This document shows positions 9,301 to 53,734 of a stretch of DNA of 64,000 nucleotides, piece after piece (within the stretch, counting starts at the first letter, position 1; each line of letters begins with the position of its first letter). The DNA is from Bugula neritina. Its lineage: Eukaryota > Bryozoa > Gymnolaemata > Cheilostomatida > Bugulidae. The stretch lies in assembly GCA_964035545.1 (NCBI GenBank), contig OZ037765.1, positions 24,167,504-24,231,503 of the forward strand, given 5' to 3'. The notes under the pieces were generated by a model. The model was not told where the DNA came from and ran no database searches. It was given only the letters and a program-made list of their open reading frames with translations. Position numbers and translations under genes: made by a program.

Positions 9301-12300
9301 CTTTATTTGTTGCTTAGTATTGCATATTTATCTTTGTTTGCGTGGCCTCCAGTTCATGGAAGTTTTTTTTATATATTTGCTGTCATTCATCAGCCTTCAC
9401 ACTTTTATATACATGTACTGGTTCATCTAACTCACTTCTCCTGTTAATTTCAGTCAGAGGAGCAGCTGTGGGCAACCCGGCCGCTGCACAGCTATTTACT
9501 TGATTCACTGGCCAAGACAGTGTCCTACTTAGTTGAGTTGAAGAAACCATTGCTGGATGAGATGATGAATGATTTTTATGTTGCCATGAACTCGTATGTG
9601 AGTGTCATAAGAGACCAATCAGAAACAGAGAGGGAGTTACCTCAGGTTAGTCAGGGTTTAGAATTTAGATGCATATTTATATTCATATCCAATTAGGCAA
9701 TGTGGTAACTGTTTGATAATGTGTTATTACTTGTGGTATTACTTCATGTTGGGTAATATTTTAATCAATTTTGTATTAATGTAAATTATAGGTTAATTTT
9801 TATAATGCTGGCACTGAATAATTTTTGAGGCCTAATTTATAAGTCGGCTGCTTCAATCAGGAGTAGCTGAGAAGTTGACATTCTGGTAGATAAAAATGTT
9901 GCGAAGGCATATATAACGACATTTTCTAAATTACTACATCAACTGAGTAACTTTGGTTGACTTCTGCCAGTAATATTCCAACTGTTTGACTATTTGCTTT
10001 TGTTCCTGTATTCACACAGATAATCATTAGCATTAAACAACTTTGTGGAACACTCATCAATTAGAATTGTTTATTACTTGGATTTTGGGCAATAATTACA
10101 AATCCAAAATCCAAAATGTTTTTTTAGGACTCATCACTACTTATAAATTCTTTTATTTTTAGTATTTTTAAACAAATTTAATCAGGAAAATTAAGTTTAA
10201 ATAAACATTATTTTGTAGTTTATGGTTTAGAATACTCATACTATACTCTGTTGCTATTTTTATTGATAACTTGAACTCAGTTGGCTTCACAAATTCATAA
10301 AAAACTGGTTTAGCTTTGAAATTTTTTTTATAAAAATACTCAAGATAGCTGTAGTTTGTTCACCTTTCACCGCCATGTCTGTTGAAATTATATCGAACTA
10401 CTCATTAGTTCATCATTACAATCCGTTGTTACTTTAAAGTTAATATTATGCATTATTTCTTCAATTTTTGATAATTACATTAAAGTATTAATTAATCTGA
10501 AATTTAATTTAATTGAATCCGACTTGAAATCTTGATCAAAATGCCCTCATCACCCTTAGCTGGCTCAGCTTTTCACCATTCGATGGAAGTTATTCATCAG
10601 TCATGTGAAGGACTGACCAACAAGAATGTGCCATCTGTTTGTCACTTGCTTTCAATTAAATTTATTTCTTAACACTTTGCATTCATAAGTTGCATTTTAA
10701 AATGTTGACTGCTGTACACTTCTCGTATTTATCACTCAATTATCTAATTTATTACACAAAAGTTATTAGGAGAGCAGCTGAATAAACTGAAACTTAGTCT
10801 TGTTAGATCCCACTAAAACTTTACTTGAGTTGATGACGTGATTCCAAGTTTAATAAAACGGTTGAGTAAATCTCAAGTTTCCTATGGTATGAAGTATGTT
10901 ATTATGTATTGCTGTAATTCGGTATTTTATATATTCTGTTGAATTGACTTTAGTGTGATGCCTGGTTTTAGCAAGAGCCATATCGTCTTCCCGCTATTTT
11001 CACTCGAATGCAACACCGGGATAGGAGGACATCACAGCTGCTCCGTCATCAAGATGATAGTCACATTGTCAACCCTGAGGGATTTATTGAAACTTATGAT
11101 AATCCTAAAGAGCTACACTATCGCCGAGACTCCATTAATCACAGTAGAATGAGAAAACAACCCTGTGGTATGTTTTAAGATTGTTCTTTTTTGTTGAGTG
11201 TTTTTCGGCATTTATACGCATATTATACTAAGTTATTAGTGTATTTTATTATAAACATAAAGCTATTCAATCACTCTAGAACTAGTTTATGCTTAAAGTA
11301 TGTAATTTTATTCTTTGAGATCATACAAAAAGTAAGATTTGTTTGCTCATACCAAACATGCACAGGTGAAAAGCAAAACGCAATAAATTACATTCATTTA
11401 AAGGAAAAAAAATTGTCAATGTGTTGAGAATCTATATGTTTGTTGTTGATTATTGTTTAGATGTCATTCCTCAAGCCAAAAAAGTGGTTCAAAAGTATGT
11501 GGTGCCATCTCATTTGTTGAAAGATTTGCCAGCAACTCAACAAAAACACTCTAGTAGCTCAAGTTCAGAGAAGCAATCAAATAGACCTGCACGTAGCCCA
11601 AATGGACAGTCGAATATGCCTGCTAGCAGCCCAAATAGACAGTCAAATATGCCTGCCAATAACTCAAATGGACAGCCGAATATACCTGCTAGGAGCTCAA
11701 ATAGACAATCAAATATGCATGCACGTAGCCCAAATGGACAGCCGAATATACCTGCTAGTAGCCCAAATGGGCAATCAAATATGCCTGCGCATAGCCCAAA
11801 TGGACCGCCGAATATACCTGCTTCTAAGCATAAAAGAATTCTCCATTCATCTTCTCAGTTTCTGTCTAACCAAGCCATTGACTCATTAAAACATCATCTG
11901 GAATCTCCACCGTCTCATTATGGTATATAATCATGTTTCTTGTAGATGTATTTTTAGTGTTGTATTCTTCCAATATCACACAGTTGATGTGTTTCGGTTA
12001 TAGTTTATTCAACTGTAGTATAGAAGTTTATGTTAACCGCATATTGAATCACTTAGCAGCTACTTATATATTTGTAGCATGTAATTTTCAAAAAGTAAAA
12101 AGTTTATGCAAATATTTTTTATTTAAACATATGTTCATAGTATTTCTATTTATTCACAGGTGCTGCCTTTGATCCGGATACAGGAGGCAATAAAAAGGAG
12201 CTGCCAGCTTCTGTTCACTCTCAGAATCGGTATGTATCACTTCATGTTACTTATTTGCTCAGAGTTTTGGATAGCTAAGTTTGAAATTTGCAAGTATGAT

Positions 12301-16993: not shown

Positions 16994-19900
16994 ATGTCTT
17001 TGTACGATGATATTGATTTGGACAATAAATCTGGAGATGCCAAAAGTGACATCTGTAAGTATACATATATCCTAAATGCTACATAACATCTGCAGGTTTT
17101 TAGGCTTAAAAATTTGAAGTTGTTTAGACCTTTGAATCGCTTTTTGATCTACTTTTTATATTTTAATTGTTATCTAATGAAAAGATAGCTGCATTTTAAA
17201 TTTGCTTGCTCTGATTTTAGCCGGATGGTCAGTAGGACACAAGCTGTTGCACTCACATTCAAAAAGTAAAAAGTCGGCAATGCCTAGTTCTTCATCGCAA
17301 TCTAAGGTATTTATATTGCTTTAGCTTACAATAATGCAATGTTAAATAGTATATCAACTGAATTTTTTTCTCTCAATTGACTTTTTATGTAAACAAAATT
17401 TTGCATGTTTTAATTTTTTATAGAAGCGCCAAAATACAGCCCTGGCTCCTGTGGTGGATCTGAACAGTGGTGGAGGCATGAGCTATGGAGGGGGAGGGAG
17501 CATTGCAGCTCAAGATGGAGAAATTAGATTTAATCATATAACTGGAAAGGTCATTTTTCCCACTCTATATTGAAATAGCAGGAAATTCTTTGCTAATAAT
17601 CACAAAATTGTTGTTATATGCAAACGAGAATGCATAATTTCTTATTTGTTTATATACAAATGTTCATGTCTATAATGATTAAAGTATTGTAAAAGATATT
17701 TGAAAGATAAGTACGAGCATCCATTTGCATAACGCGATGTAAAGGAAACGCTGTGAATTTGGAAAATAAGTTAATTTATTTTATCATTAGATGGAAGCTG
17801 GTCCTATGCCGAGATCATATGCTCAGCTTGGAATGAAGACATATCCATTAAGTTCACCATTTGCTGACATGAGCATAGAATATGATCCTGGCTTTCCTAA
17901 TGAGTACTCAGATTTCTCAAAGAGGCTAAAGAAATTACGTTATCAGGAACGAGAAAGAGAAGAACAGGAACAAGAAAATGAACGGCGAAAAGAATCTGAA
18001 GAACGTCAAAAGTTAGTATTTACAGTATTTGAGCTTGAATTATTAAACATCTGCTTCATCCCTAAAGACCTGCAGTGGCTAATGCTTTATATTATATCAG
18101 TTCATATAACAAGGCTTTGTTCCTAGCTTCTTTTTTTATTGAACTGAACTTTTTTATTTCTATACTTCTATACTGCTTATTTTTCTTCTATTTAGCAGTC
18201 TGTCTCTGCTCTTTTAGTGTGCTTATCTAAGCGATTCTTTTCATTTTGTAATTTTACATGTGCTGCGTGCGCACGTCTCTGTCTGTAAAGCATGGGTTAT
18301 CTTTTGTTGAACAGAAGGCGTGAGGACGAACGTAAAGAAAGATTAGAAAAAATTGCTGCATCTTTTAAACCACCACCTAATTTGTACAACGAGTCACCAA
18401 AAGAAACTGAAAGTACAAAGAGACTTGCGTTATACGATTCATCTTCGGATAGTGACGATGATGAGAAAAATAAGTACAACAATAAAGGTGAATACTCTAT
18501 AAAGAAGATATGTGTTTAATGAAAAAATACTTGTGATATTAATATACTTTTTCGTAAATATTATCGTTCTCAGCTGTTTCTTGACTGCTTTACTAGAATT
18601 GTAGAAATATACATTGCCAGTTAACGTGTATAGAGCAAATTTTTTTTGTGTATTGTCTGTAGGAAATATGGAGTTTGCTCCACCACCAAGTCTTGTAGAA
18701 GAATCAAAACCAATGACCCCTCCTTCATACTCTAGCCCTTTGAACCAAGCTGCTGAAGATGAGCTAACAGGTTTTAAAATAGAAGGCAAAGGGTGAGTCA
18801 TAAAACACTGAAATTACAAGCAACAAGTTGTAATGATATGACAACTCCAGATTAGTGAATGGCTTATAAAGATGACTTCTGCTGATTTAAAACAATACTA
18901 TACTATGTAGTATGTGTTCAATAACTTTTTACATAACACATACTACATTGTAAAGTATTGTTGTAAATCAGCAGAAGTTGCCTTAAATAAGTCATTTACT
19001 AATGTAGAGTTGTCATATCATTGCATTAGTATTATTCCTATATATTTTAACAGCAGGTAATCAGTTTATGAGTATATTGCTTAATTGAAATTATAGTTAG
19101 CATTTATGCTATTATTTACATAGGTCAAAAATGGATTGCACTAACAAATGCATTTATTTGTTGAATGATAAATTAAATATAGGTTATGAAACTTACATAA
19201 TGCCATTAATATGGCTTACAAAATATAATGTTAAGTTGTAATAATTTAAAACTTTTCAGTGGCAAATATTTATTCAATTGAGAGTGTAGTTTTAGTAGAA
19301 CTGAAGTAGATGTACTTTGAGTCTCAATCGGAAATAAATATTTTTATAACTGTTCTGAGTAGAAGTTTTTGTGTTCTTTTTAAAGATTGCCAAGTGCACA
19401 GATGTAAATTGTTATTTAGCTAGAAGCTTTTAATTTTTTATATCTATCATTTAGGATATTTTACAAGCAGACAACTTCACATTATGCAAACTCAAGTTGC
19501 TTTTTCTCAGCATTGGTGAATTAGCACCTGCAAAGCTACTAATCATAGCAGTACTTGAAAACTAAAACCAACTAGATAAATAACAAAGTTTTTGAAATGC
19601 ATTGTAATTGCTGTGAATGAGAAATCTATAATTGTGAAACATGTTGATGTTTGTTACTTTTAGTGGAAGTGTAGCCTCAAAGATTATGGCTAAAATGGGG
19701 TATAGGCAGGGTAGTGGTCTTGGCAGAGATGAGCAGGGCATGAGTCGGGCTCTTCAGGTGGAGAAAACTAGTCGAAGAGGCGGAAAAATCCTACATGAAA
19801 AAGATATTGCTTCTAAAGGTTACTTTTACGCTATTAGGTTTTTCAGAGCTATCTATAGCTTATGTGAGATGGGAGGGTTCACATACCTTCCTTAAAGTTG

Positions 19901-22900: not shown

Positions 22901-23992
22901 GGTGTCATTATGAATCCTATATTGTATATCATTTATGAATTCTGCTTGTGTTTATTATATACTTACCCTACAATGCCACTACTTTTATGATGCTTTTTTT
23001 AATACTTTTCATATATCACTAATGTTAAAAAATATGTGTTTTGTAGCTGCAAAATGTTCCAGAAGTCTTAGCAGTTCGAATATTTGTGGAATTTGAAAAA
23101 ATCTCTTTTGCCATCAAAGGTGAGCACAAAATGGTATCTCAGTATCTTCGTAACTAACAATTTTGATCTTCAGTCCATTTTATGTAATTGTTGATTGAAA
23201 AAAAATAAAAGGTAGATGTAATTCATAGATTTGATTCAAGTTGTACAACATCTCTGACGAGTTTGGAACTTTTAGCCTCTGTTCTAGTTTAAAATGTAGC
23301 AAAAGAAGTTATGTCTTCTCGCATAGCAGTATGCATAGCCTGTGCTCAAACTTTAAAACTACCCTAGTAATTATACTGTGTATTGCGGCAGTTAGGAATA
23401 GCATCAAATAAAAGTAAGCAACAATTAGTATTAGTTTACTTGGTAGCTATCAATAAGTGAATCAAAATTTCAAATTATTCGAAGACATGTGTGTCCAAAA
23501 ATTGTTAGGAAATGAAATCTCTTAAGAACACAACTCTGATACTTTTAGTATTTATAAATCATTCAATACTAACTGGGCATCCACTATTAGGTCACAAATC
23601 CTCGAGCAAGTCAAAGATAATGTTAATAAAATATTTTTTACACTTTGTTTTAGTTATAAAAAATCAAGTAGCATTTTTATGTTGCTAATTAGAAATCTTT
23701 TAGTTCTATAATGGTTTAGTCAAGCTGTTTAGAAAGTAAATGAGAAATGAAGTATACTTGGTTGTATTCACTTTCATATTCACAAACTTCTTGGAAAAGT
23801 TTTCTCCAGGATGTTATTCTTGTGGATTGAAGTTTGCCGTTGCTATTCATCAGCCCATTATATTTTGATGCGCTTTTCTTTGTAGCTGCTATTGATTTGA
23901 ATGGGAGGTATTTTGGAGGTCGTGTAGTCCGAGCTTCATTTTATTCCCATGAGAAGTTTCTAGAAATGAAATTAGATGACGATCCTTTATAA
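16994..23992 (+). CDS. RBM17: RBM17 / splicing factor 45 (SPF45)
   Basis: Eleven exons: 16994-17054, 17221-17306, 17424-17549, 17791-18011, 18315-18487, 18663-18792, 19664-19818, 21555-21646, 22023-22121, 23047-23119, 23886-23992; 440 aa, in frame throughout. SPF45 is a nuclear splicing factor that binds U2AF/SF3B1-type ligand motifs and influences 3' splice-site choice. Seen in order: the family start MSLYDDIDLD; ALAPVVDL; YDPGFPNEYSDFSKRLKKLR; a charged coiled-coil-like Arg/Glu stretch; FAPPPSLVEE; a G-patch at about 266-315 (VASKIMAKMGYRQGSGLGRDEQGMS, ending TSRRGGKIL); and a C-terminal UHM-type RRM at 349-435 with NMVGPGEVD, EECSKYGKVIKCVIYE and the diagnostic R413-Y-F415 motif. Human SPF45 (401 aa) aligns from end to end. 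Introns hold a large palindrome (18832-19024). Start is unambiguous. Confidence 0.97.
18832..19024. repeat. Long near-perfect palindrome (hairpin MITE) in RBM17 intron 6
   Basis: The left arm, AATGATATGACAACTC... CTTCTGCTGATTTA... ATGTAGTATGTGTT (18832-18922), is repeated in inverse as AACACATACTACAT... TAAATCAGCAGAAG... GAGTTGTCATATCATT (18938-19023), with a short loop around ATAACTTTTTACA. The arms are about 85 bp with scattered mismatches. No ORF. A transcript across it would fold into a long stem. Confidence 0.8.
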
Positions 23993-25250
23993 CCAATACT
24001 CCAGAGGAGGAGAAGCAGGAAATACTGAACAGCACTTTCCAACGCTGCTATATAATATTCCTGTAATAGTGTAGTGACATTAAACAACTTTGAAGTGGGA
24101 TCTAATCTTGTTTGAAATGCGAAAACACTATTTAAGCATTAATTGATGATGCTAAAATTTTACCTACCAACTCTAACTTTTAGCTTACATGCCTGTGTGT
24201 AGCTAATAGTAGAAGTAAAATGTATAATTGTAATGATGGATTGAAGTCTGATATTTTTAAATGTATTCTACTTGGAAATATTTGTTAATATACATTTTCA
24301 TGTGTTAAGAATAGCATAAAATCTGTACATACATCGTTCTACTTGCTATCTTTTATTATTATAAATGGAAATTTAGATATTGTCATGTTTTCTATCATCA
24401 TCTGTGGCATTTAAAGCTTGAATTATATTATATGCCTATGAATATTATCTCCGCCACTTTGAGCATGTTTTTTTTAAACAAATCACAAATCTATAGTAAA
24501 TAATTTGCAGTGACAGAGATTAAACTTGTATATTTTCAAGATATGATTATTCTCTCATGATGCAATAAGATGCACTATGCCGGGTGTAACCAGACCCTAC
24601 GTCATGTACAGTGCATTGTCAACGTCTGAGTGCGTTATAGGTAGGGCACAATATTGCACATAACAAGGTGAATCATACAAAACTCCTTCATTCAAGTACT
24701 ACGGGAAGGAAATTGTTTGCATTTCCTGCTGCATTCAGACTGCCAGATAACGAATTCTAAAGAAATGTTGAGGCTATTACAGTAAATCAGAAAGAATTAC
24801 ATTCTTTTGTTGGTAAATTCAATGTTGTCTTGCACGTAACAGAAACAATTGAGAATCTTAAAATCAATATCAAAGGTTTCATTTTAGGTCATATAAGAGT
24901 CATTTAGTCAAATAAAGAATTATTTATCAGATAATTCTTTGCTTTGTGAGCATCTCATGTTTCAGGGCCGACTAAACGCTACAGACTGTCAGAAAGGTTA
25001 ACACTTTGACTGTCTCCTAATACAGGTATAAAGCAGAGCAAATAAACCCTGCAAACTTTCATTAAGCTACTTGCATCATTTATTCATGTCGGTCAGCGGT
25101 TTAAGAACTTATTAGACTTGAATTAGGCTAATATATAATATATTAGAGTTGCTCAGTCAAAGTTGAATGTTTTTGAGGCTTGTTTACTCTGTTGGTAATG
25201 GCATACCTGTCTCATCTTAGAAGTCTACTCTGAAATCGTCTACACTAGAA
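23993..25250. other. Intergenic between RBM17 and the first RFamide gene
   Basis: 3' flank of RBM17 and AT-rich spacer. A few less AT-rich tens of bases at 24570-24700 may be the upstream flank of the next gene, but no motif is secure. No coding exon seen. Confidence 0.5.
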
Positions 25251-27375
25251 ATGCAACTTACATGTCCACTGCTATCTGGGGCTATTTTCATCTGGCTGGC
25301 TTGCATGTGCACAGGATTTCCCATCATCAATAACCCAAGGCTTTATAATTGTGACAAATCATCAGATAGAGAGCTTTACTATCTATGTCTGACATTGACA
25401 GAGAGTAAGTTTACTATGATACTATGTTTATGGTGGTTTCTGTTTAATAAAATAGTGGCAAACTGGTATAATTATGCGTTGTATATAGAACTGACAATTT
25501 ATATTTTCTTCTATTTTCAACTTTCGAACTATTTTGAATAAAACATAATGAGTAATTTAAATTTAATAGATATGCACATCTATGAAAATGTAATAGTAGC
25601 TTATCTTTTCATTTTTTAGAAATTGGCAACATTTTAATGCAGTTCCACTGTTCCAGGGTACATATTTCTAGGCTACTCAGCAAGCCTAACTGTACAAACT
25701 ATAGCTATATAAACATATTTTCACATTTTAAACCAAGAGCCAAGTATTCTTATTTTATGTCATAACATGCAATTTTAAAACTAATATGTTTCTAAATATT
25801 TAATGAAGTATTTTTAAAATTATTCATCAAAAACATGCATAACTTATATTTAAAGTTTTAATATAATCTTGTGCTTATATTAAGTCTACTAGAAAAGGAT
25901 CTTGTTCTGGCACTTATTTAGGTGTAGAAGTTGAGATTTTAATAGTTTAAGTTCTTTAATTTTCTTAACAAATTTTGGTTTGGGGCACAAGCTGAAGTTC
26001 TCATGAGAGCATAACTTCTTTTACTACATTTCTGATCTAAATCACAGGGTTTCCTTAATTTTTCCATTACTACACCTACCTGTGGAAGCTTGTATTTAGT
26101 AGGTCTAAAGCTATTTTAACATTCTTATTTGAGTCCGGAAGTGTTAACTACGTCATGTAAATAGTATAATTTAAATTCATTGCGCTTCTATAATTAAGAC
26201 TACAAAAAATCTATTTTGTTTTTTTAACATTCAATTTTTTTCTAACCATATATTCTGAGACATAACATACCAACCAGTTTCAGCTGTGAACTGTTTCCGC
26301 TGGGTTTATAGTCAATATATAATGTTTGCATTATGAAGTTTCAAATTTGCAATAACTGTAGCAAAAAAATATTGGTTGTTTCATTTTTAATCAAATGCGT
26401 ATGTTACCAAAATGGTAATTAAACTAAAAACAACAAGTACGGCACCTAATTTCTTTACAAAGTGTCTTTTTCATACTATTTCCTTAAGGCAATTAGCATA
26501 TACTATATTGTATTGTGTTTGAACAATTGTTGATGTTCTAAATCTATAAACATGTTTTTCTTCCTTTGAATCCCATTTCTATTACCTAGTTTAAGATTTC
26601 ATATATAATTGAAATTTCAGTGATGGATGCAGATAGAGAAAAGTATAATAATCCCTATCAAAGGCAGTGGGAGTCACTATATTTTTCTGGCAGCAACACT
26701 AATCAACTGAACTACCTTGCCAGGTACAAGATATATAGGTACAGTTACACATTACCATACTGCACCACACCATGCCGTACCATACTATATAATACTATAC
26801 TACACCATATGCTATATCATAACTTGTTGGCCGCACCCTGCTGTATCATATGTGCATTAAAACCACACATATAAACCGAATGCATATATATTAAGGCATC
26901 TACATTTTTGTTTCAATTAGAGAGCAATGTTGGCTGGCCTCATAAGTTAAAAATCAGGTTTCTATTTTTGTTTAATGAATTCTGTTTTAGTTGAATGACA
27001 TTATTTATTTAGTGTCAAGTTTTTTAGTTAATTTAAAAAAACATGCTAGCATATAGGAGGCTTATTCGTGATTGCTGACTGATGCTTAAACATAAAATGT
27101 CCTGAGGCTGTGGGTATCTCATTTTTAATTAAGGTAGATATCAATTATGAAACGATAAAATTTCCCCTGAGAGGCCAATAATCACAAAACAGCAACTCAC
27201 CTTTTCACAATCAGGTCAGACTAAAGTGACAATTTGTTTAGAAAACCTGCCATACTCATTGTCAATTACGGTTGACTCATTTTTTTACAGAGCCTTGAAC
27301 TATCCAGATGCACAGAAACAGCCTACCTTCACTAATAAAAGAGTTGAAACTGGACATTTCAATAGATTTGGCTGA
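25251..27375 (+). CDS. RFamide neuropeptide precursor 1 (VETGHFNRFamide)
   Basis: Three exons: 25251-25404, 26621-26723, 27291-27375; 113 aa, in frame. Seen: a hydrophobic signal peptide (residues 1-22, ending CMCTG), then a propeptide with two cysteines (C34 and C46, spacing 11) in a Leu/Tyr-rich helix-like stretch, an acidic and aromatic linker with NNPYQRQWESLYF, and a dibasic site K102-R103 followed by VETGHFNRFG and the stop codon. Inference: prohormone convertase cuts after KR, and Gly113 is the amide donor, giving the nonapeptide VETGHFNRF-NH2 for secretion from neurons or endocrine cells. A two-cysteine propeptide followed by one C-terminal RFamide is the plan of insect myosuppressin precursors, but the mature peptide differs from xDVDHxFLRF. 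The second precursor lies 1.4 kb downstream on the same strand and has the same length. No homolog is recognised with certainty. Confidence 0.75.
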
Positions 27376-28799
27376 ATGTTGTTCTAAAAACTATATCTAA
27401 GTTTTACTCGTTTAATTTAGTCAAGTTTACCTGTGATTTCACATGACTGTAGATGTAATATATGTTATAAGTCTTGTTTTAAATGTTTTTAATTCATATT
27501 ACTATAGTTTGAGCTATATTATGATGCACGGTTCCTGCTAATAATCTTAAACCATTATAAAGTGCATTGCTTTTATCATAGTATCTTGTTATAAACTTTA
27601 TATAAAACAATAATAATAATAGTAACAATAACATATAGGCTAGTATTCAAATGCTCATTTGTTGTGCATGTCATGTTGTTTATCTAAGTTATAATTTTAT
27701 ATAATATTATAATTGCTAAGGTTATAGCTATTCTATTGGCAGTTCAAAAACTGCAAGGGCTTAAAATTTGCTAGTAAATTTTAAACCCTTGATCTTTCCA
27801 ACATTTTTTGATTATTATAAATATTTTGTGTCACTAAACAGGTTTTGTTATATACCTAATATCATAATAATTACTATATTATATTATAGTATGAGCAGAA
27901 ACTTATACAGAAATAGATATACTTATTTAGCATAAAATTTTTTATTATTTCATCATTGCTATGTTCAGCCTATGCTGACGGAAGCAACTGTCTATGCTGT
28001 CCTATGAAACACTCAGCATGTAATGATGCCTTATTTATTGGCAGCATACAAAGAAAACTGTTTAATGCAGCTTATTACAGGTTGATGCAATTACATTGAA
28101 TCCTGTTGACTTTTCCTCTACAAAAGTGACTGCATTCAAACAACCCGATAACAATTCAATTAACATATGTAACCCACATTTCTCATTTAGCAGAAAATCT
28201 ATAAACTAACCATTATGTAAGCACCTTTATAACTAAAAGTAATGAAAAATATAGACAGCATAAAAATTGAGAAATAATTTACGAGCTTGATGATGGTGTT
28301 TCCTCTACCCTTTCTGTCCCAAGAGGAAAGACATTTGTTGGTATAAAGTGTACATTCTCACCACTGTGCATATCATTAATAAGTTCTCTACGAATAAAGC
28401 TAGACTAAGCCAATATTTTTATTTGGAGAGTAATTAACAAGCTTAGTAATTTGAAGGTAAGTATGATATAGAATTTGTGACTTTGCTGCTAAATCCAATT
28501 TCAATCTAGGATATACTAAATTTAATTCTGTTCTGTAGTATGTAACACTATTACAAATTATTATAATATAGTGTACTTAGTGCTTGCTTTAGCATTATAT
28601 AAAATTGAATGTTTGCGTATCAAGTAAATCAGATAATATTTACCGGGAAAATTTTTAGCTCATACTAAGTGCATTTAATAGGTTTTGGAAATTAATAATG
28701 TTAGCAGCTATACAGCGGACTGAATTTAATTTATCAAATCTTATAAAGAAGAAATAGTGAATCACAACACATGACTATGTTTCAGAACAGCTAGGAACC
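27376..28799. other. Intergenic between the two RFamide genes
   Basis: AT-rich 3' flank of precursor 1 and 5' flank of precursor 2, with a short AATAATAATA run near 27608. No coding exon or RNA gene seen. Confidence 0.5.
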
Positions 28800-29999
28800 A
28801 TGTACAAGAAGGTTATCTTGATAGTAGCAACTTTTGCAACTATTGGAAGCATTTTAGCAGCCCCTGTGATTGAAGACAGCTCAAGTACCATATATGAAAG
28901 AGTTGAACGTGCTAGGCACCTGTGTTTGAATGCTGAAACAGATTTTTTCGATGCCATTTTGTGTGAAATATTGTTTCAACATGAAAATGTGACACCATAT
29001 TTACCAGGTAAGTTTGAATAGTACTAATTTAGTCATGACCCAATCAGTAATATAAAAATTATAATTTAAAGTTGTATTTCAACCTAGTAAATTTTATAGC
29101 TAAAAAACTTGAGAACTTCTAAATTTAGTTATCCTAAATGTATGTTCATTAGAAATTCGTATTGGGTTTGACATTACTGTAAGATGCCATTTAAAGCGTT
29201 GTGCAGAGTGCTAACTTGAATTGATACCTAAAAATATGCATTCAGATATTTTTGTCTTTCTAGATTGTCACATATTTCCCATCTTTAAATGCAGTAACCG
29301 ACAAATTTCAATAGCTTAAAGGTTTTTTTTAGTTTTAGCTCCAGCCTAAAATCTTGCAAACAAACAACTTCTTTCAAGATATTTATTCCCACCAGAAAAC
29401 AGGATTTTTTAGATTTCTTCATTACTGCCTCTACCCCGTTCTCTACACTGTTCAAAATACAATGCTGAGTGCAATCTTTAGGTCTCAGCTTTTAAAATAA
29501 ATCAAAAAAGTCTTATGTAGGAGAAAATACTTAATAAATGAAGCATCAAAACCTTTCAATGACAAAGGTTTTCTGTATATGGGTATAATAAGTATGAACA
29601 AAACTAAATCTGACTAAATTATAGTGAGATCAGTAAAGCTTACCATGCCGTGCATTATTATCAACTATATTCTATACGTGCTAAAATTACTACTATTGAA
29701 TTTAATAGCACAATAAGATACTGTACTTTATTATGGTAATTTAATGAATGCCTTTTTTAAGTTGAGAATAAAACTGCTGTGAGTAACAAGCTTTACTCAC
29801 CTGTTTGTAATGTAACTTGCTGTGGTTAAATCTAAAATGAGTTTTTATCTTTTTTGGGGTTTTAGAATCTGCAAAAAGAACTGGCCCTAAAAATCCCAGA
29901 CCAAAACTCTCTCCTTATGGAAATTTGCTTTCCAACGTGAGATTTGGCAGGAAAAGAAGAAATAGTTTAGCTGCTGCTGCGCATCCCAAGTCCAACTAA
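28800..29999 (+). CDS. RFamide neuropeptide precursor 2 (long NVRFamide)
   Basis: Two exons: 28800-29007 and 29866-29999; 113 aa. Seen: a signal peptide MYKKVILIVATFATIGSILA with likely cleavage before APVIEDSS; a propeptide with C42 and C55 (spacing 12) in an amphipathic run (HLCLNAETDFFDAILCEILF); K73-R74; a peptide at residues 75-96 starting TGPKNPRPKL and ending SPYGNLLSNVRF; amidation Gly97; a tetrabasic R98-K-R-R101 site; and a 12-residue tail NSLAAAAHPKSN. The expected product is a 22-residue peptide amide with C terminus Asn-Val-Arg-Phe-NH2. It has no internal dibasic site. Same length, two-cysteine plan and first-intron phase (phase 1) as precursor 1, so the two are probably old tandem duplicates, although sequence identity is low. 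Family not recognised; NPF/NPY, luqin and myosuppressin were considered without a convincing match. Confidence 0.8.
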
Positions 30000-30159: not shown

Positions 30160-30165
30160 AATAAA
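30160..30165 (+). promoter_or_regulatory. Candidate polyadenylation signal of RFamide precursor 2
   Basis: AATAAA 161 bp after the stop codon of precursor 2. Confidence 0.45.
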
Positions 30166-35723: not shown

Positions 35724-38700
35724 ATGCCAACAAACAAAGATATTGCTGCTGAGCGAGCAAACTCAACTATCAGCGCCAAAGACTTGACATTTACATTGTA
35801 TGGTAAAGATGGGACATATAGAAGAAAATTGGCTTGTATGTTCATTTCATTCGGATTTCTGAATTACTGTATGATATAGTATTAACGGGCACAATACATA
35901 TGGCTGTAGAGTTTACTGACAAATATAAGTACTCTTTTTCCAAAGCAAATGTAGTTATGTTATTTGGAAAATATATTACGGTTTTTTTGTTACTAAGCAT
36001 GGTTTTACCCTCTAATAGTTTTTTTTAGTTGAGAGAGCCGATAAGAATCAGGCTTTTGCAAAGTCTAAAAAGTTTTTACTGATGGATCGTGATGAGTTGT
36101 ATGATGAAGCCATACGTATGGAGACGGTTGTCACTCAATGTTTGCAGGAATATGGGTATAATAATTCCAAAGATATGCAAACATTTCTTGACCGAGGGCA
36201 CTTTTTAAGGTATAATAAATAATTATTGCGCTATATCTGTTGTAATTTAATAAAACATATGTTTGAAATATCTAATTTTACAGTTGAGTTTGCTGTTCAT
36301 ATCATTTTCATATGTGCAAAAATTGTCTAGTACAAGGATGCAAAAATAATTTTAATTTTATGTTTTATGCTTTATTAAATTTTGTTTTTTTTTATAGCGC
36401 AGTTTTTCTTGGTGTTCACCCATTTGCTATTCATTTTGGTGCATTTATACCGAGTATTCTGGGCCAAGGCACGCCTGAGCAGATCCAGAAGTTTCTCCCT
36501 GAAGCTGAGTGCATGGAGTACATTGGTACATATTGTCAGACGGAACTTAGTCATGGTGTGTGTACAATCCTATCTCTTGTATAAAACTGAATTATGTAAC
36601 GCTAGACTTAGGATCTTAAATATTACAAACTGGCAAGTATTAAAAGTTGTTCCTTCGTGGTCTCAATATTGCCAAACATATTCTCCAGGCTCATTTGTAA
36701 GAGGTTTGGAGACTACAGCTACCTATGATAAGAGTACTGAAGAATTTATTCTACACACTCCTAACCTTTCTGCCATCAAGTTTTGGCCTGGTGGGCGTAA
36801 GTATAGTTTCTTTTTCATAAAAATATTACATAATTTCTTGTATTTTGTCTGTTGAACTGACAAAAACCCAGAGCAGTTTTTATTACACTTGATTTCAACC
36901 AAAATGAATATTTTTTGCTGCAGCTTTTTTCTATTAAACTACTTTACTCAAACTCAGGATTGTGTGCTTCTCAAGTCAACACAGTTCATTCATTTATTCA
37001 ACCTAAAATCTAAATTTAGTAAATCTAGAGAATCTTTAAATAATTTTGCTCAATCTAAAAGTTTCAAATTTTTAAAAACACAAAGAAAACATTTCTTAAA
37101 CTTTATTCTCTAAAATTGATGCTCTCTTTGATGGGGCAACTTATTCTTAATTTATAAAGTTAAAAATTACTGTTGAAAAATATTTGCACTATCAAAAAAA
37201 GGTTGTCTAATTAATAATATGAAGTAATTTTTTTTTTCCTAAAATATAAAGAGTTGAAATAATTTTAAAAGATTAGCTACATCTATTGGGAAATATTTTT
37301 AGCCATGTGTTTATTTTTGAAAAAATGCCCAACTCAACATTTTTTAAAAACAATTGTAAGAAAAAGTTCTTTAATTTACATCAACTCAGTATATGAAAAA
37401 TATAAATAGACTATTTTACCAAGTTTTAACATGAAAGCTAGTGTGACAATGTTTTAGAAACATTTCTTCTTATATTCTTAGTGGGCAGATCTTGCAACTA
37501 TGCAGTCCTTATGGCCCAACTAGTAATAGATGGAAAGAATTATGGAATTCATCCATTTATGTGTCAGTTGAGAGATTTAAACACCCACCAACCACTTCCA
37601 GGTTAGATTGTTTATAGTCTGGACTCTAGTTGAACAGTTTGTATATTGTTATAGTGTGTTTTTAAATGCCATTTTTTTGTATTTTAAATGTTATGTTTGA
37701 CCATCATTTATCTTTTTTATGAAACATTTTGCTGGGTCACTTATGTAACTTACTGATTTTAGTATGTATGCAATTTCTGTTATATTTTAGTATGTATGTA
37801 ATTGTCTGTTGAATGATGTTGTTTAGGTGTAGAGGTGGGTGACATCAACTATAAATTTGGTGGGAATGCACTTGATAATGGCTACCTGATATTGACTCAC
37901 TACCGAATTCCTAGAACTAATTTACTAATGAAGTATGCACAGGTAACTGGCTGATTTAAATTTTTGTTTATTTTACTTACTTTACTCCTGCAGTTTTGAT
38001 TCATTTTTCTGTTTTAAATCATCTGTCAACACAATATACTTATAGCTAGCAGCTATTTATTGTCTTTAAACTGATACTCTATAACACATTTAGGACTTGA
38101 CTTCTACTCTGTTCATGCTGCTAAACTTTCATTGGTTCACCAGGTATCACCAGATGGCTCTTACACTAGACAGGATGTTCCTCCTCAAATAGCTTACCTT
38201 TCCATGACTTTCCTCAGAACTATTCTGGTCACAGCAAGTGCTAGCAGTCTTGCTAAGGCTGCTACTATTGCCACAAGATACAGCGCAGTTCGAAGACAGA
38301 CTGCTAATAGAGATGGGTATGTATCAATGCATCCCTTAGATAAGTCCTACATTCACTTGACTCCTTAGCTATTTTTTGGTGGCAGATTTTATAGGTATGT
38401 TTACTCCTTGCTTATTTACCATCTCATTTATTGCTAAATAATAGCTGAGTGCAGGTGAAGGCAGCTGAGGTGTGTTGCAATCCCCTCATGTTTGTTGATA
38501 GAATTGAACCACAGATATTAGACTACCAGACACAACAGATGAAGCTGTTTCCAGCCATTTGTACTGCATATGCTCTACACTTTTCTGGAGCTGCTTTACA
38601 GTGTGCATACAACGACATACTTGTATCTGTTGGTAACGGGGATATGTCTAGACTAAGTGAAGTATGTGTGATACAAGAACTATTTTAACTGCTAAATTAT

Positions 38701-41485
38701 GTGAGTTTAGTGATAACAACTTGGTGATGGTTCATTACATCGGCTGGTTGTCAACTTTTTTTTGTTGTTGTTGCTAGTACTCAGTTTGTTTGTGCACACA
38801 ATCAAAGAGTGAGAATGGAGAAATAGTAACAAATAGTAAGTTAGTAATTAAAATACTGGAATGATTGTAGTTATTTGCGTTATAATGTTGAATTTAGAAA
38901 AGAAGCTGTGTTGTAGCTGCACTGCCTTACTTCTGGATTGAAAGCTTATTCAGCTGATGTAAGCAGTTATCATATAGAAGTTTGCCGAAGGTCATGTGGA
39001 GGTCATGGCTATAGTCATGCTAGTGGAATTCCTGATATTTATCAACAGAATGTGATAAACTGTACGGTTGAAGGTGAAAGCACAGTTCTTTACCTTCAGG
39101 TGGGAAGGTAAGTGAGTGTACTACTATAGAAGGTAGGTAATTCCTTTTGATAACATCAATGCTTTAATTTATTTGTAAAGATCTCTTGTATTAATCATCA
39201 AATAACATTGATTTGTTTTGCTGAAGTATTTTTATGGGCAGAAAATGCTTGCTGCAAATATGTGATCATCTAAAAAGTATAAATTATACCTCTTTTAAAA
39301 ATTGTTTACAATCCTAAACATAAATATACCATCACCTACAATTTTTTCAACACAACTTCTACCATGTGAATAAACTGTATGCGCTGTACTTGGGTTTATA
39401 GATCCCTTGTGAAGTTTCTTAAGAAGGCTGACTCAGGAGAGAAGCTGCCACCTGCACTGGCATTTCTATCAGAGTCTTCACCTCCAACAGCAAAGTTTAC
39501 ACTGAGAACACAGTCTTCTCTGGACTTTTGTGTTTCAGTGTTCAAGTACAACATTGTCCAGTATGCTAATATTCTTTGTTCTCATTAGCCACCTCTGGCA
39601 AATTTTCTTGTCTATTCACTCATTGATATGTAGTATACTAGGAATTTTCTAGAACTATAATATTCATTGAACCAAACTTATTTTGCTAACATCGATGTTA
39701 TCTAAGTAACCAAACCTCTTCTTATAAGACTTGTGCTAAATATTCGCTTAAAATAGGTTATAGTTTTGTTACATAAGGAGCAGTTGCAGTCTAGTGGTTG
39801 GGTGCTGATCTAGTAAGCCCTTTCAATCAGGGGTTTTTACAGGGATGGTGATTTTAAGCAATCGCATATTTTTTATTGGTTTTTAAATTTATTAGTGAAT
39901 TAGTTTTGTTCCATCATAGATGTGCATAAGAACTCGTGCTCTAGCACTTGCTTAGTAATCTCTATTTTAAATCAATGATGCAGGCTGACTAGAGCTGTGA
40001 CTCATCAGATTGCTCAGTCACTGTCTGCCGACTCAGTGAATCTAGAAGCTGCACTAGCACTTCACTCATTAGAACTAGTGAAAACTGCTCAGGTAGGATA
40101 TGTATATATAGTTTACATTGGGTAGTTGTTTTTAAACGGCTAAAGCATTTAGAGTAGGTGTGTTTTTAATCTGAAATATGAAGTTATTAATGGGGCTTGA
40201 TTATTTATGGTAAGCTCTTGCCTAGCGATGTGGAGTGAAATATTTTTACTAAAACCCAATCATTAACTCTAAAAAGGAAAGCTGAGTAATTTACGATTTT
40301 TACTCACCACACCAACAGTTTCCTAGGTTGTAGTGTGTGTATTCTAAATTTAGTTTTTTTTTCAAGTAAAGAAAAGTACATGGAACCTTTAATGGCATTA
40401 AGAAAATGTAATTGCCTGTAATACCAACTCAGCATTACTGGCCAAAGACTGTCATAAGCTTTCACACCATAATTACAACTTGTCTAAGTATATGTTTTTC
40501 GATGCAGATATTCGATTCATATGCATATATTTGCTTTTTTTAGGCATTTGCTCAATATCTTACAGTAGTTATGTTTGTTGATGGTGTAAAGGGATCAAAA
40601 TTAAATGCAAAGGAGAAGTTGTGTATGCTGCATATGTGCGAGTTCTATGCTATCCACAATATTGTTGAAGAAAGTGGACAGTTTTTAAAAGTGAGTTTGG
40701 TAACATTAAATAACAATAACAAATAGTTGCTGATCTATTACTTCAACTAAATTAACAATTTATGTACAAAACCTGAACTGTTGAAATTTTTAATTTTTAA
40801 ATTGGCTCATTTTGTTTTTAGAATGAAGCATTAAATGCTGAGCAGCTGTCACAGTTGTGTCAGCATCGTACATTCTTGTTGACACAATTAAGACCAAATG
40901 CTGTAGCACTGGTTGATGCATTTGATTATCCAGATCGTCTGCTGAATAGTTGTCTGGGAAGATATGATGGGAATGTATATGAAGCTCTGTATGAGTATGC
41001 AAAGAGTTCTTCACTCAATCAACATCAGGTATAGTTAATATCTTATAGTATAATTATGTAGAGGTTTTATACTCAGTAATAGTAACTAGATGAAGTAGTA
41101 TGAACTATCTACACTCAATCAACATCAGGTATAGTTAATATAACATTATTTAGTTCAAATGTCTTTTGCTTGATCAGCATTATAGGTGCTTAGATTGGTG
41201 CATTTTTGTGTCACTTGTTGGGGGAAATTAAACACACTTTGTGCTATATACATCGAACACTAAAATCTTAACAGGCGGTGACTAGTTGCCCATATATTAG
41301 TATTCTTTGTAATGTACGATTGTTGAAGTTGATTGAATGGTTTGAGTTGAAAGATTGTGTCAGTTTGTAATAATGTTTTGTTGGGAGCAACATAGTTGTG
41401 TAAAGTATAATATTTGTTTCAGGTTCACCCATCTTACCACAAGTACATCAAACCAATGCAGCAGGCACTCAGAGCCAACTTGTGA
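35724..41485 (+). CDS. ACOX1: Peroxisomal acyl-CoA oxidase (ACOX1-like)
   Basis: Fourteen exons: 35724-35835, 36029-36209, 36398-36555, 36689-36796, 37482-37601, 37827-37942, 38144-38320, 38455-38661, 38917-39107, 39402-39560, 39984-40092, 40544-40690, 40822-41028, 41423-41485; 684 aa (human ACOX1 is 660). It catalyses the first, FAD-dependent, H2O2-producing step of peroxisomal beta-oxidation of very long acyl-CoAs. Seen: ACOX N domain ([11 protein letters not shown]); [20 protein letters not shown], then [92 protein letters not shown] with the catalytic Glu near residue 445; ACOX C-terminal domain with [13 protein letters not shown] and [10 protein letters not shown]. It ends RANL, like catalase's KANL, a non-canonical type 1 peroxisomal signal. 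The exon 7 donor is ambiguous: GTATGT at 38317 breaks the frame, GTATCA at 38321 keeps it. Orthology to ACOX1 rather than a paralog is inferred. Confidence 0.93.
39780..39866 (+). mobile_element. tRNA-Thr-derived SINE, internally deleted copy 2
   Basis: GCAGTTGCAGTCTAGTGG matches the SINE head, then GATCTAGTAA jumps directly to GCCCTTTCAATCAGGGG and TTTTTACAGGGATGG. The middle of the element present in copies 1 and 3 is missing. It lies in ACOX intron 10. Confidence 0.65.
41012..41140 (+). repeat. Duplicated splice donor: 29-bp direct repeat 100 bp apart in ACOX
   Basis: Positions 41012-41040 and 41112-41140 are identical (CACTCAATCAACATCAG then GTATAGTTAATA). The first copy holds the end of coding exon 13 and its donor; the second is an intronic decoy with the same exon end and donor. 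Confidence 0.9.
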
Positions 41486-44895: not shown

Positions 44896-47800
44896 ATGTA
44901 TAACTATACCATATACTTAATACTTGGCTCCTTTCTAATAACTTCTTCATTTGAATTGGAGCAGCATGCTGCGAAAAAAGCAAATTTAAATCGAAGTCTG
45001 TGGCCATTGAAAAGCTCAGATTCATTGAAATACTCACTGAAATTTCAATATACTTATAGCACTGCCTACTTCACTCTTCCTGTAAGTATTATTAAGTTTA
45101 CTGCTGACATTGAATTCAATGTCGAATTTTACTCAGTCATGTAAAAAGTTACAATAACAATTGTTATAATTTCCAATGGATTTTAAAGTTAAACTTGAAG
45201 TTAAAGTTAAACACTAACTTAGTAACTCTAACAGTTGGACTTGGCGTTACACTTTTGGTATGTTGTATGAGTATCACATTCACTGCCGTCTATCACTGTA
45301 TCAGTATGACTATGGGTGATACTAGCAGTAGCAGTGTGAGTGTAGCTCGGACACTAACACAGTAACACTAACTGTAAGTGTAACAGCCAACAACTACAAG
45401 GCTTGAGCGAACTTGGTAAATTAATTCTTTTTTATAAATTATATAAACGGTTGGTATTACTAAAATAAAAAGTATAAGTTAATGCTAGTACTTAATCACA
45501 GTAGCCGTAGCTGTCATTGATAAATTCAAATAGTTTGATACTTGAACTTGGGCCAAGTAAAGCACTTGGTTAATTTTCACATTGTTGCACATGACAACTA
45601 ACAACTCTCTGATTATATTGTCTCTTAAGATGCACTGAAAAGTCATTATATTCTACAAACATTAGTATCAACAAAAACAAGCCATTTTTATTTTTTAGTG
45701 GGAGAAGGGGGTGCGAATATGCTATTTTATGTTCACTGTTCTTGGTTTAGAGTTTGGCATACGACTGTTTTATTAGTTTACAGTAATACTAACAATTGTG
45801 TGTTAGCTTTTTGCTGAAGAGCTGATTTCTAAACCTACCTTTAAACCTACAATGACAGTGTTGAAACTATCCACAATCTACAATTTTCAGCCTAATAAGA
45901 AAATAAATTTATTAGGAATAAAATAATATACAACTTTCAAACACAATGCAGCTGCTAAATTACAATTATGACATTTTAATCCACAGGTTGACCACTTTGG
46001 TTTTGCCACTACAGACACATATCAAATGAGGTATTTATACAATATGGACTATTGGGACAAAAATGGCGGACCGATTTTGTTTTATTGTGGAAATGAAGGA
46101 GATATTGAAGACTTTGCCATTAATACGGTAAGCTAGTAATTGTAGAAGAAACTTTATTTAGTGTGATCTTGATAATGGTGAGATGACAGAAAAAGATTTA
46201 AATGGTTATTATATTATATGTATTTACATCTTTAGCTAAAGTTACCACAGCAATTTGTATGTCACTCTGTTGAAAAAATTTTGACTTTTAAACTTGCAGC
46301 ATTCTTTCTAAACACTTAGGCTATATTTACTTTTCAGTAACTTGTGTTGCTATCAATTTTGTAGGGGTTCATGTGGGACATTTCTAAACAGATGAAGGCA
46401 ATGGTGGTGTTTGCTGAGCATAGATATTATGGTAAATCATTACCATATGGAGACAAGTCATTCAAGGTCAAGTGATAAAATGCTAGTTTTTAATAATTGG
46501 TTTAGTTATATGCTGATCAAAAAAACATGCTTTTTATATCAACAATTTTGTATCTAACGTCAGCTGGTTGAAGCTGCTGAATTTCTAACTCTGCTTGTAT
46601 AACCAGTTATAATATAACATTGCATATGCTTTAATACAGGATGCTGCCCACTTGGGTTATTTGACAGCAGAGCAAGCTTTAGCCGACTACGCCGTGTTCT
46701 TGACCTCATTCAAGGCCACTACAGCTGGTGCTGCCAATAGTCCAGTGGTTGCTTTCGGCGGGTCATATGGAGGAATGTTGGCTGCTTGGATGAGGGCAAA
46801 ATATCCTCAAATAATCATTGGGTTTGTTTGGTTTTTCTCTATACATCTCAATAAATGCCATATCAAGACCTTTTTAAAACAATGTATTACTCTCTGTCTA
46901 AGTATAGCATGTGGCAGTGTTGGTTTGACATATTTTATGGTAAACTGGAGTCAGACTCAGCAGAATGATGGTAATGTCGTAACGAGCATTCAATCTAAAT
47001 GTTTCTTGTATCACTTTCAAGTTGTTAACCAGTGTGGTTTAATTATAAAAACAAATTTTGTCAGGATATCAAAGGAACCATAGCCTAAGCAAACTTGAGC
47101 TTTTGTCACAATTAATACATACATGTATATATTTTGCCGTTTTACAGGGCACTGGCAGCTTCTGCCCCTGTGCTGCAGTTTGAAGGAGTCACCCCATGTG
47201 AGGCGTATAATGAGATTGCCACAAAGACATTCGCCAGATATGGCTCTAATTGTGTTGAAAATGTTCGGAAATCGTGGAAAGCTATGACTGACCTCTACAA
47301 TTCTGGCGGTATAACCTGACCTGCTTTATACTCTTCTTACCTGTTTTATCTCTTCTTACCTGCTTCATACTCTTCTTACCTGCTTTATACTCTTATTACC
47401 TGTTTTATCTCTTCTTACCTGCTTCATACTCTTCTTACCTGCTTTATACTCTTCTTACCTGCTTTATACTCTTCTAACCTGCTTTATACTCTTCTTACCT
47501 GCTTTATACTCTTCTAACCTGCTTTATACTCTTCTTACCTGCTTTATACTCTTCTTACCTGCTTTATACTTTTCTTACCTGCTTTATACTCTTCTAACCT
47601 GCTTTACACTCTTCTTACCTGTTTTTTTACTCTTATTGGTGCAGTTTTCCATATGCACATAATTAGCCTCCTATAGTTTTACTTTTTGTGCTTTGGATGT
47701 TGTGAACAAAGCAGGTTTCAAGAGAGTGACAAGTTAGTAAATGTGACCGTATCCTTTCCAATACTTTTATGTCATAACTTTGCTATATGCCACCATGTTG

Positions 47801-53300: not shown

Positions 53301-53683
53301 GGGTATTTAGACACCCAGTGTTTGAAGACATTCAATGCTCTCATTATGGCTGTTGATGTGCTGCTCACTGAACACTTGGCAGACGCTGAAGTAAAAATAA
53401 TAAACATTTGATTGGTTAGAGAAAAGTTTGTTACAAATATTCTGGAAATAATATAACATGTTGATCATTAGAAATATTACAAGAATAAAACCTAAATAAG
53501 GTTTATTTAACTGCTATTACTTCTTTCTAGCATCTAATACAGTGTGTTGAGTGTGTGTTGAGTGTGTGTTGAGTGTGTGTTGAGTGTGTGTTGAGTGTGT
53601 GTTGAGTGTGTGTTGAGTGTGTGTTGAGTGTGTGTTGAGTGTGTGTTGAGTGTGTGTTGAGTGTGTGTTGAGTGTGTGTGTGT

Positions 53684-53734
<51 letters not shown>

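What the first reader, a model, noticed from the sequence alone, without database searches (positions are those of the whole stretch)
25251..29999. Tandem pair of two-cysteine RFamide precursors of identical length
Two neighbouring same-strand genes each encode exactly 113 residues with a signal peptide, a Cys pair (spacing 11 and 12) in a helix-like propeptide, and one C-terminal RFamide after KR. Their mature peptides are very different (9 versus 22 residues). The plan matches insect myosuppressin precursors, known for two cysteines and one C-terminal FLRFamide, but neither peptide matches that consensus. This suggests an undescribed, duplicated RFamide system, with copies diverged to new ligands. 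The first intron is in phase 1 in both genes.
Basis: partly seen in the sequence, partly recalled or inferred. Interest (0 to 1): 0.85.

Follow-up and report, generated by a model that had tools for sequence, protein, structure and literature searches.

The report
Two unannotated bryozoan RFamide hormone genes
Two neighbouring genes in a moss animal (bryozoan) look like precursors of small RFamide nerve-signalling peptides, and a public gene model appears to have fused them into one unnamed protein; they are new peptides of a familiar kind, and nothing found here shows that they are copies of each other or belong to the insect myosuppressin family.

Summary
The window matches chromosome 1 of a Bugula neritina assembly. 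Both gene models hold up. Gene 1 has three coding exons and ends in VETGHFNRF-amide. Gene 2 has two and yields TGPKNPRPKLSPYGNLLSNVRF-amide. They are the only matches in the window to two dibasic-to-RFG patterns (random means 0.083 and 0.0 per 64 kb). An NCBI B. neritina protein, EB796_021632, fuses gene 1 exons 1-2 with gene 2 exons 1-2 and differs enough to be a second lineage, so both genes, in order, are conserved. The RFamide of gene 2 is confirmed there (AGPKNNKPKLSPYGNLLTSMRF-amide, P0003); exon 3 of gene 1, which carries its RFamide, is not. 'Exactly 113 residues' is fragile: a second in-frame donor gives 118. Duplication has no sequence support: no BLASTP alignment; 1160 of 2000 shuffles score as well. 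The myosuppressin HVFLRFamide consensus is not met and similarity is marginal. The gene 1 'propeptide' is 59/64 identical between lineages against 16/22 for gene 2's mature peptide, so it may itself be active. New members of a known kind, useful because the 2016 B. neritina survey reports no FMRFamide transcript.

The parts
24601..24640 (+). Probable 3' part of a 5'-UTR exon of gene 1 (donor ATAG|GTAGGG; acceptor CTTAG|AAGTC ending at 25220)
   Evidence: P0002 carries VMYSALSTSECVI-EVYPEI; the same string is found at 24601-24639 and EVYSEI at 25220-25237; EVYSEI and STLEMQ lie in different frames in the window, so it is read as UTR (inference)
25251..25404 (+). Gene 1 exon 1: signal peptide (about residues 1-22) and Cys34/Cys46 segment; phase-1 donor
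   Evidence: aligned with P0002 residues
25350..25388 (+). Gene 1 Cys34 to Cys46 (11 residues between)
   Evidence: both Cys conserved in P0002
26621..26723 (+). Gene 1 exon 2; an alternative in-frame donor (exon end 26738) would add YKIYR
   Evidence: P0002 reads NYLARYKIYR; the TE/MMDADREKYNNPYQ junction matches P0002
27291..27375 (+). Gene 1 exon 3, with KR cleavage site, amide-donor Gly and stop
   Evidence: only match of its pattern in the window; not seen in any relative
27343..27369 (+). Predicted mature peptide 1: VETGHFNRF-NH2
28800..29007 (+). Gene 2 exon 1: signal peptide (about residues 1-20) and propeptide with Cys42/Cys55; phase-1 donor
   Evidence: P0001 and P0002
28923..28964 (+). 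Gene 2 Cys42 to Cys55 (12 residues between)
   Evidence: both conserved in P0001 and P0002
29866..29999 (+). Gene 2 exon 2: KR, 22-residue peptide, Gly, RKRR, 12-residue tail, stop
   Evidence: P0003 and P0002
29880..29945 (+). Predicted mature peptide 2: TGPKNPRPKLSPYGNLLSNVRF-NH2
   Evidence: 16 of 22 residues conserved in P0003, with KR, RFG and RKRR intact
30160..30165 (+). AATAAA, candidate polyadenylation signal of gene 2

Best explanation
These are two adjacent, same-strand neuropeptide prohormone genes of a cheilostome bryozoan. Shown: signal-peptide-like start, paired Cys, dibasic site and RFG in both, splice sites, and conservation of gene 2 and of gene 1 exons 1-2, in the same order, in a second B. 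neritina lineage. Inferred: each has its own transcript; in peptidergic neurons the precursor enters the secretory pathway and the two Cys form one disulphide in the prosegment. A proprotein convertase cuts at KR (and RKRR in gene 2), carboxypeptidase trims, and the amidating enzyme turns the Gly into an RFamide. Gene 1 gives VETGHFNRF-NH2 and a disulphide-containing N-terminal peptide; gene 2 gives TGPKNPRPKLSPYGNLLSNVRF-NH2. Each acts on its own G-protein-coupled receptor. The genes are most likely unrelated, or too diverged to relate, and not a demonstrable tandem duplicate.
For: Gene models and motifs. Exon GC 0.37-0.42 against 0.27-0.33 in introns and spacer. Relatives P0001, P0002 and P0003: gene 1 residues 23-86 are 59/64 identical, gene 2 signal peptide 19/20, gene 2 mature peptide 16/22 with KR and RFG-RKRR intact. 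No Pfam family for either precursor. A query with each gene found only that gene in the genome (gene 2 at E<=0.001; gene 1 at E<=10). The NPF gene of the same genome is elsewhere (C4) and has an intron inside the Arg codon, which these genes lack.
Against: No RNA or mass-spectrometry evidence was seen. Gene 1 exon 3, the only source of its RFamide, is missing from the P0002 gene model and from the other database hits. The exon-2 donor of gene 1 is ambiguous. The gene 2 mature peptide varies at positions -3 to -5 (SNVRF against TSMRF), where RFamides are usually most conserved (recalled). The signal-peptide rule used is weak: 25 of 90 ATG ORFs in the window pass it.
Confidence: 0.8

Rival explanations
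1. The main active product of gene 1 is not the RFamide but the long two-cysteine peptide after the signal peptide (GFPIINNPRLYNC...LC...ESLYFSG...), a disulphide hormone; the RFamide is a minor or absent product.
For: Residues 23-86 are 59/64 identical between lineages (47/49 over residues 27-75), against 17/22 in the signal peptide, 36/49 in the gene 2 propeptide (Fisher p 0.009) and 16/22 in the gene 2 mature peptide. This is in the range of GPB5 (79 and 89%) and NPF (91%) against other published B. neritina sequences, which may be from another lineage than EB796. No dibasic site lies inside it (by reading).
Against: Only two sequences; the contrast with its own signal peptide is not significant (p 0.12). 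Exon 3 in this window has the marks of an amidated peptide, and its pattern is rare by chance.
Confidence: 0.25
2. Gene 1 is a bryozoan myosuppressin/myomodulin-type gene that kept a single FxRFamide.
For: Plan: two Cys then one C-terminal amidated peptide after KR. The peptide has H and FxRF-amide, like HVFLRF-amide. Against a fly precursor (recalled letters) 16 of 2000 shuffles reach the score. Thiel et al. [quoted passage not shown] My myomodulin-repeat query gave 8 rows at 4 places, all simple repeats by eye.
Against: The HVFLRF consensus is not met. The best alignment to fly does not pair the Cys residues. Against lobster 118 of 2000 shuffles reach the score, while fly-lobster gives 0 of 2000. 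Gene 2 against lobster scores about as well (37 of 2000). Three coding exons, not the two per transcript of Locusta.
Confidence: 0.12
3. Gene 2 encodes the unknown lophotrochozoan kisspeptin-type ligand.
For: YGNLLSNVRF-NH2 lines up with kisspeptin YNWNSFGLRF-NH2 (recalled): Tyr at -10, hydrophobic-R-F amide. An Asn lies in the core and a phase-1 intron separates the signal-peptide exon from the peptide exon, as PMC9400282 describes (sections 7 and 8). That paper says lophotrochozoan ligands are unknown (passage).
Against: Three identities of ten, two of them the selected RF. No Leu-X-Phe (Val or Met instead). Exon 1 also holds a 49-residue propeptide. Phase 1 alone is weak.
Confidence: 0.05
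4. The two genes are a true tandem duplicate diverged beyond recognition.
For: Adjacent, same strand, same plan, Cys spacing 11 and 12, both first introns phase 1.
Against: No alignment; 1160 of 2000 shuffles match the score. Intron position, intron number and peptide differ.
Confidence: 0.25
5. One fused gene, as annotated in EB796_021632.
For: NCBI model P0002. If EB796 is the 2020 draft genome (inferred, prefix not checked), it came from AUGUSTUS with transcriptome hints (PMC7576161, passages).
Against: It would place a second signal-peptide-like stretch with its own Met in mid-protein. It leaves out the gene 1 exon that ends in a stop here, and it adds upstream residues whose frame is not kept in the window.
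Confidence: 0.05

Closest known systems
Arthropod myosuppressin precursors (lobster pQDLDHVFLRFamide; Locusta Ms)
   Same: Cys pair upstream and one amidated RF peptide near the C-terminus; gene 2 also has two coding exons, as each Locusta transcript does
   Different: No HVFLRF consensus; 9 and 22 residues instead of 10; sequence similarity marginal or absent
Spiralian myomodulins
   Same: Held to be the spiralian orthologues of myosuppressin (PMC8557429, passages), the clade that gene 1 might belong to
   Different: Those usually end in RLamide/RMamide/PRXamide; here one RFamide per precursor
Luqin/RYamide precursors
   Same: Two Cys about ten residues apart and an RF/RW/RYamide
   Different: In luqin the Cys pair is in the C-terminal region, after the peptide; here it precedes the peptide
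Bugula neritina NPF (BnNPFL)
   Same: Same species name; ends in VRFamide as gene 2 does
   Different: 35-residue NPY type; in this genome on C4 with an intron inside the Arg codon
FMRFamide-related peptides
   Same: Gene 1 ends in FxRFamide
   Different: Single copy with Asn at X; a made-up multi-copy query found no FMRFamide gene, sensitivity untested

Membership tests
Neuropeptide prohormone (general kind) | Signal peptide, convertase site, amide-donor Gly | tested here: met
   (signal peptide by a crude rule that 25 of 90 window ORFs also pass)
Neuropeptide prohormone (general kind) | Conserved in a relative | tested here: met
   gene 2 whole, gene 1 exons 1-2; gene 1 exon 3 not found
Neuropeptide prohormone (general kind) | Expressed and processed to the amide | not testable with these tools
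   no RNA or peptide data
Myosuppressin | C-terminal HVFLRF-amide decapeptide | tested here: not met
   GHFNRF and LSNVRF; consensus
Myosuppressin | Two Cys in the propeptide before a single C-terminal peptide | tested here: met
   lobster linker peptides
Myosuppressin | Sequence similarity of precursors | tested here: inconclusive
   shuffles reaching the score: gene 1 16/2000 (fly, recalled letters) and 118/2000 (lobster); gene 2 706/2000 and 37/2000; control fly-lobster 0/2000
Myosuppressin/myomodulin | Receptor of that clade present and activated | not tested
   the receptor-family searches did not complete; activation needs the bench
[quoted passage not shown]
   gene 2 has V/M-R-F; motif
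Kisspeptin type | Phase-1 intron between signal-peptide exon and peptide exon | tested here: inconclusive
   gene 2 has a phase-1 intron, but exon 1 also holds the propeptide (rule)
NPF/NPY | Intron splitting the Arg codon of the terminal RF (conserved position recalled) | tested here: not met
   present in the NPF gene, absent in both genes
Sulfakinin/CCK | Tyr with 5-7 residues to the amide, often DYG | tested here: not met
   gene 2 has PYG with more residues to the C-terminus (by reading; rule); gene 1 peptide has no Tyr
Luqin/RYamide | Peptide followed by a Cys pair about 10 residues apart at the C-terminus | tested here: not met
   Cys pair precedes the peptide (rule)
Tandem duplicates of one another | Sequence similarity above shuffled controls | tested here: not met

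The most novel reading that the evidence does not exclude
Bryozoans carry a two-gene RFamide locus whose first gene is a dual prohormone: a strongly conserved two-cysteine peptide that is itself a hormone, plus a short FxRFamide that keeps the lost RFamide end of the spiralian myosuppressin/myomodulin system. The second gene is a new long RFamide, possibly the missing lophotrochozoan kisspeptin-type ligand.
Probability: 0.06. Interest if true: 0.75.

Novelty: new member of a known kind. Interest (0 to 1): 0.4.

Why it matters
The 2016 survey of B. neritina precursors cites earlier FMRFamide staining of bryozoan larvae but states that no FMRFamide or RYamide transcript was detected (PMC4990251, sections 13 and 18 and passages). 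These two genes are concrete RFamide candidates for that staining (inference), in a species whose larval settlement is studied. They also suggest that a public gene model (EB796_021632) merges two hormone genes, which could hide them from neuropeptide surveys.

Tried and rejected
Rejected: one fused gene (P0002 model), NPF, luqin and CCK membership, and demonstrable tandem duplication, for the reasons given in the rivals and membership table. Led nowhere: Pfam on both precursors; IMG/VR scans (13 and 4 pattern matches, none confirmed); tRNA and Rfam scans of the window (nothing); PDB profile searches (only a DIM-5 histone methyltransferase chain at E 0.83; nothing); Pfam on P0002 (one match, PF04730, below its cut-off); AlphaFold on P0002 with five other rows (mean pLDDT 35.6, not used). 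The FMRFamide repeat query gave one row (L014, E 0.0071), a simple repeat by eye. The myomodulin repeat query gave 8 rows at 4 places, all simple repeats by eye. These made-up queries had no positive control, so absence of those genes is not shown. Paper searches for FNRFamide (0 papers) and NVRFamide (2 papers, both on Nematostella by title) gave nothing relevant. Gene 1 as a whole precursor found nothing; its relative appeared only with the piecewise alignment. Why is not certain: the fused relative is 248 residues, longer than 1.75 times the 113-residue query.

A slip of mine, mended: searches used 25401 instead of 25404 as the end of gene 1 exon 1 in the intron-position and GC lines. One search gives the right values; the phases do not change, and the protein letters and shuffle tests were not affected.

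Of the 20 window ORFs scanned for neighbour genes had a Pfam match at E<=0.01; nine reached the curated cut-off and one (window 1137-1862, PF11488) did not.
Full report
Identity of the window. The window is held as G000:C1:24167504-24231503 of a 215,847,546-base assembly. Contig lengths C1 35,640,107, C3 32,418,041, C4 24,795,343 and C5 17,720,077 match chromosomes 1, 3, 4 and 5 of the Bugula neritina assembly tzBugNeri2.1 (216.00 Mb; 35.64, 32.42, 24.8 and 17.72 Mb; PMC11480708, passages read). Published B. neritina hormone sequences find their counterparts in it: neurophysin 86 and 81%, GPB5 79 and 89%, NPF 91% over 33 residues (sequences from PMC4990251 Table 2). These identities are below 100%, as are those to the EB796 protein, so the species name seems to cover well-separated lineages (inference). 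Neighbours by Pfam are a G-patch protein (19638-19892), acyl-CoA oxidase (36288-41031), an S28 carboxypeptidase (46613-49445) and, on the minus strand, a RasGEF/RhoGEF protein (51212-63585). The G-patch gene looks like RBM17/SPF45 by eye (recalled) and seems to end near 23986, though that last stretch had no Pfam match. The two genes lie between it and acyl-CoA oxidase.

The observation. Gene 1: signal peptide, Cys34 and Cys46, no dibasic site until KR, then VETGHFNRFG and stop. Gene 2: signal peptide, Cys42 and Cys55, AKR, then TGPKNPRPKLSPYGNLLSNVRFG, RKRR and a 12-residue tail. Introns: gene 1 phases 1 and 2, gene 2 phase 1. In a six-frame scan of the window, a dibasic site plus 3-30 residues plus RFG-stop, and the same plus RFG-dibasic, each match exactly once, at these genes. 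Sixty first-order random sequences of the same length gave means of 0.083 and 0.0. Exon GC is 0.37-0.42 and intron or spacer GC 0.27-0.33. The signal-peptide test used is crude: both pass, as does the NPF control, but so do 25 of 90 ATG ORFs of the window.

Relatives. Gene 2 as a whole found one relative among two candidates, P0001: 73 residues, E 1.8e-26, 80% identical over 61% of the query, ending in what reads as an intron read-through at the same donor. Gene 1 as a whole found none. The third and last protein search used an alignment stitched from gene 1 exon pieces and gene 2 exon 2, and returned two proteins at E<=10 out of 926 candidates. P0002 is 'hypothetical protein EB796_021632 [Bugula neritina]', 248 residues, E 4.2e-61. 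P0003 is a 50-residue ORF from JGI data, E 7.9e-10. P0002 contains gene 1 exons 1 and 2 (through NYLAR and on to YKIYR), then gene 2 from MYKK to HPKSN; I read it as an automatic fusion of both genes. If EB796 is the 2020 draft genome (the prefix was not checked), its genes were predicted by AUGUSTUS with transcriptome hints (PMC7576161, passages). P0002 supports the gene 1 exon 1/2 junction and shows the same order of the two genes in a second lineage. P0003 gives the gene 2 peptide of what seems to be that lineage as AGPKNNKPKLSPYGNLLTSMRF followed by GRKRR. P0002 has divergent stretches near the end of exon 1 and at the peptide (YGEITSMRFGRKKKK), which I read as sequence or model error (inference).

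What is not confirmed. No relative found shows gene 1 exon 3. Exon 2 of gene 1 has two in-frame donors, CAG|GTACAA (exon end 26723) and TAG|GTACAG (exon end 26738); the second adds YKIYR (118 residues), and P0002 reads ARYKIYR as well. Equal length is therefore not a safe feature. P0002 also includes an upstream string (VMYSALSTSECVI-EVYPEI) whose counterpart is at 24601-24639 and 25220-25237 with splice signals between. In the window EVYSEI and the STLEMQ that holds the ATG at 25251 lie in different frames, so I read the upstream part as 5' UTR.

Where selection acts. Between the two lineages, gene 1 keeps 17/22 signal-peptide residues but 59/64 of residues 23-86, and 47/49 of residues 27-75. 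Gene 2 keeps 19/20 of the signal peptide and 36/49 of the propeptide (P0001), and 16/22 of the mature peptide (P0003). The difference between the two prosegments has Fisher p 0.009; the difference within gene 1 is not significant (p 0.12). With only two lineages this is a lead: the gene 1 two-cysteine segment is unusually conserved for a discarded propeptide and may be a product in its own right.

Are they duplicates? BLASTP finds no alignment at E<=100. After removing the signal peptides the local score is 27, below the shuffled mean of 28.3; 1160 of 2000 shuffles reach it. Phase-1 introns follow the second Cys by 5 residues in gene 1 and 14 in gene 2. Homology of the two is not excluded but has no sequence support. 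A query with each gene against the whole genome found only itself (gene 2 at E<=0.001; gene 1 at E<=10).

Known families. Myosuppressin: the lobster precursor gives pQDLDHVFLRFamide and Cys-bearing linkers (PMC7654637, passages), and in Locusta the peptide lies on a second coding exon (PMC4237046, passages). Gene 1 and gene 2 share the plan but not the consensus. Shuffle tests give 16/2000 (gene 1, fly), 118/2000 (gene 1, lobster), 706/2000 (gene 2, fly) and 37/2000 (gene 2, lobster), against 0/2000 for fly-lobster. The fly letters were recalled, the lobster letters joined from reported peptides, and the shared RFG favours a match, so these are at best hints. Spiralian orthologues of myosuppressin are myomodulins, usually RLamide/RMamide/PRXamide (PMC8557429, passages). 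Kisspeptin: PMC9400282 (sections 5, 7 and 8 and passages) says that lophotrochozoan ligands are unknown and gives a phase-1 intron and a Leu-X-Phe-amide motif. Gene 2 has the phase but V/M-R-F. NPF: the NPF gene of this genome splits the Arg codon by an intron, which neither gene does. Luqin has its Cys pair in the C-terminal region (PMC4208409 and PMC4772807, passages). CCK has Tyr 5-7 residues from the amide (PMC8428848, passages). The receptor side was not examined: the family searches did not complete.

Print record. The one bryozoan neuropeptide survey found is Wong et al. 2016 (PMC4990251; abstract, sections 13 and 18 and term passages read). It lists 11 precursors; the mature peptides in its Table 2 do not include these, and it says FMRFamide and RYamide transcripts were not detected. 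Searches for FNRFamide, NVRFamide, bryozoan neuropeptide and RFamide papers and B. neritina neuropeptide papers listed no report of these peptides (listings, beyond the papers named above). A paper on Bugulina stolonifera zooids holds none of the terms neuropeptide, RFamide or peptide hormone (PMC7534450). The library holds open-licence PMC papers only, no preprints, and no supplements could be read.

Verdict. They are two real-looking RFamide prohormone genes, new as members but ordinary in kind. Gene 2 is well supported as a precursor; gene 1 is well supported as a secreted two-Cys protein and probable as an RFamide source. The duplication and myosuppressin readings are not established.

Noticed in passing
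whole window / G000: The assembly matches B. neritina tzBugNeri2.1, yet hormone sequences published under the name B. neritina (Wong 2016; EB796 protein) differ from it by roughly 10-20%, so the name seems to cover well-diverged lineages.
   Followed up: partly
L006, L007, L012, L013 (G000:C5:7278081-7280361 and 7285437-7286938): Two neurophysin (vasotocin-type) gene pieces lie about 6.6 kb apart on the same strand (86 and 81% to the published B. neritina neurophysin), a probable tandem duplicate.
   Followed up: no
L008, L009, L011 (G000:C3:265622-272442): About 6 kb from the GPB5 exons, on the same strand, lies a second, 41% identical match to GPB5, perhaps a second glycoprotein-hormone subunit gene.
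   Followed up: no
L010, 600-1700, minus strand: The NPF gene of this bryozoan has an intron inside the Arg codon of the terminal RF, the position recalled as typical of NPY/NPF genes.
   Followed up: yes
window 1137-1862 (+): A 242-residue open frame with one hydrophobic stretch and a charged tail, resembling a KCNE-like membrane protein by eye (recalled); Pfam gives only a below-cut-off match.
   Followed up: partly
window 11574-11822: 66-bp tandem repeat (33-bp sub-unit) inside an open frame of 186 residues coding for repeats of the type RSPNGQSNMPA.
   Followed up: no
window 47319-47634: 20-bp tandem array, 15.9 copies, between stretches that match S28 carboxypeptidase.
   Followed up: no
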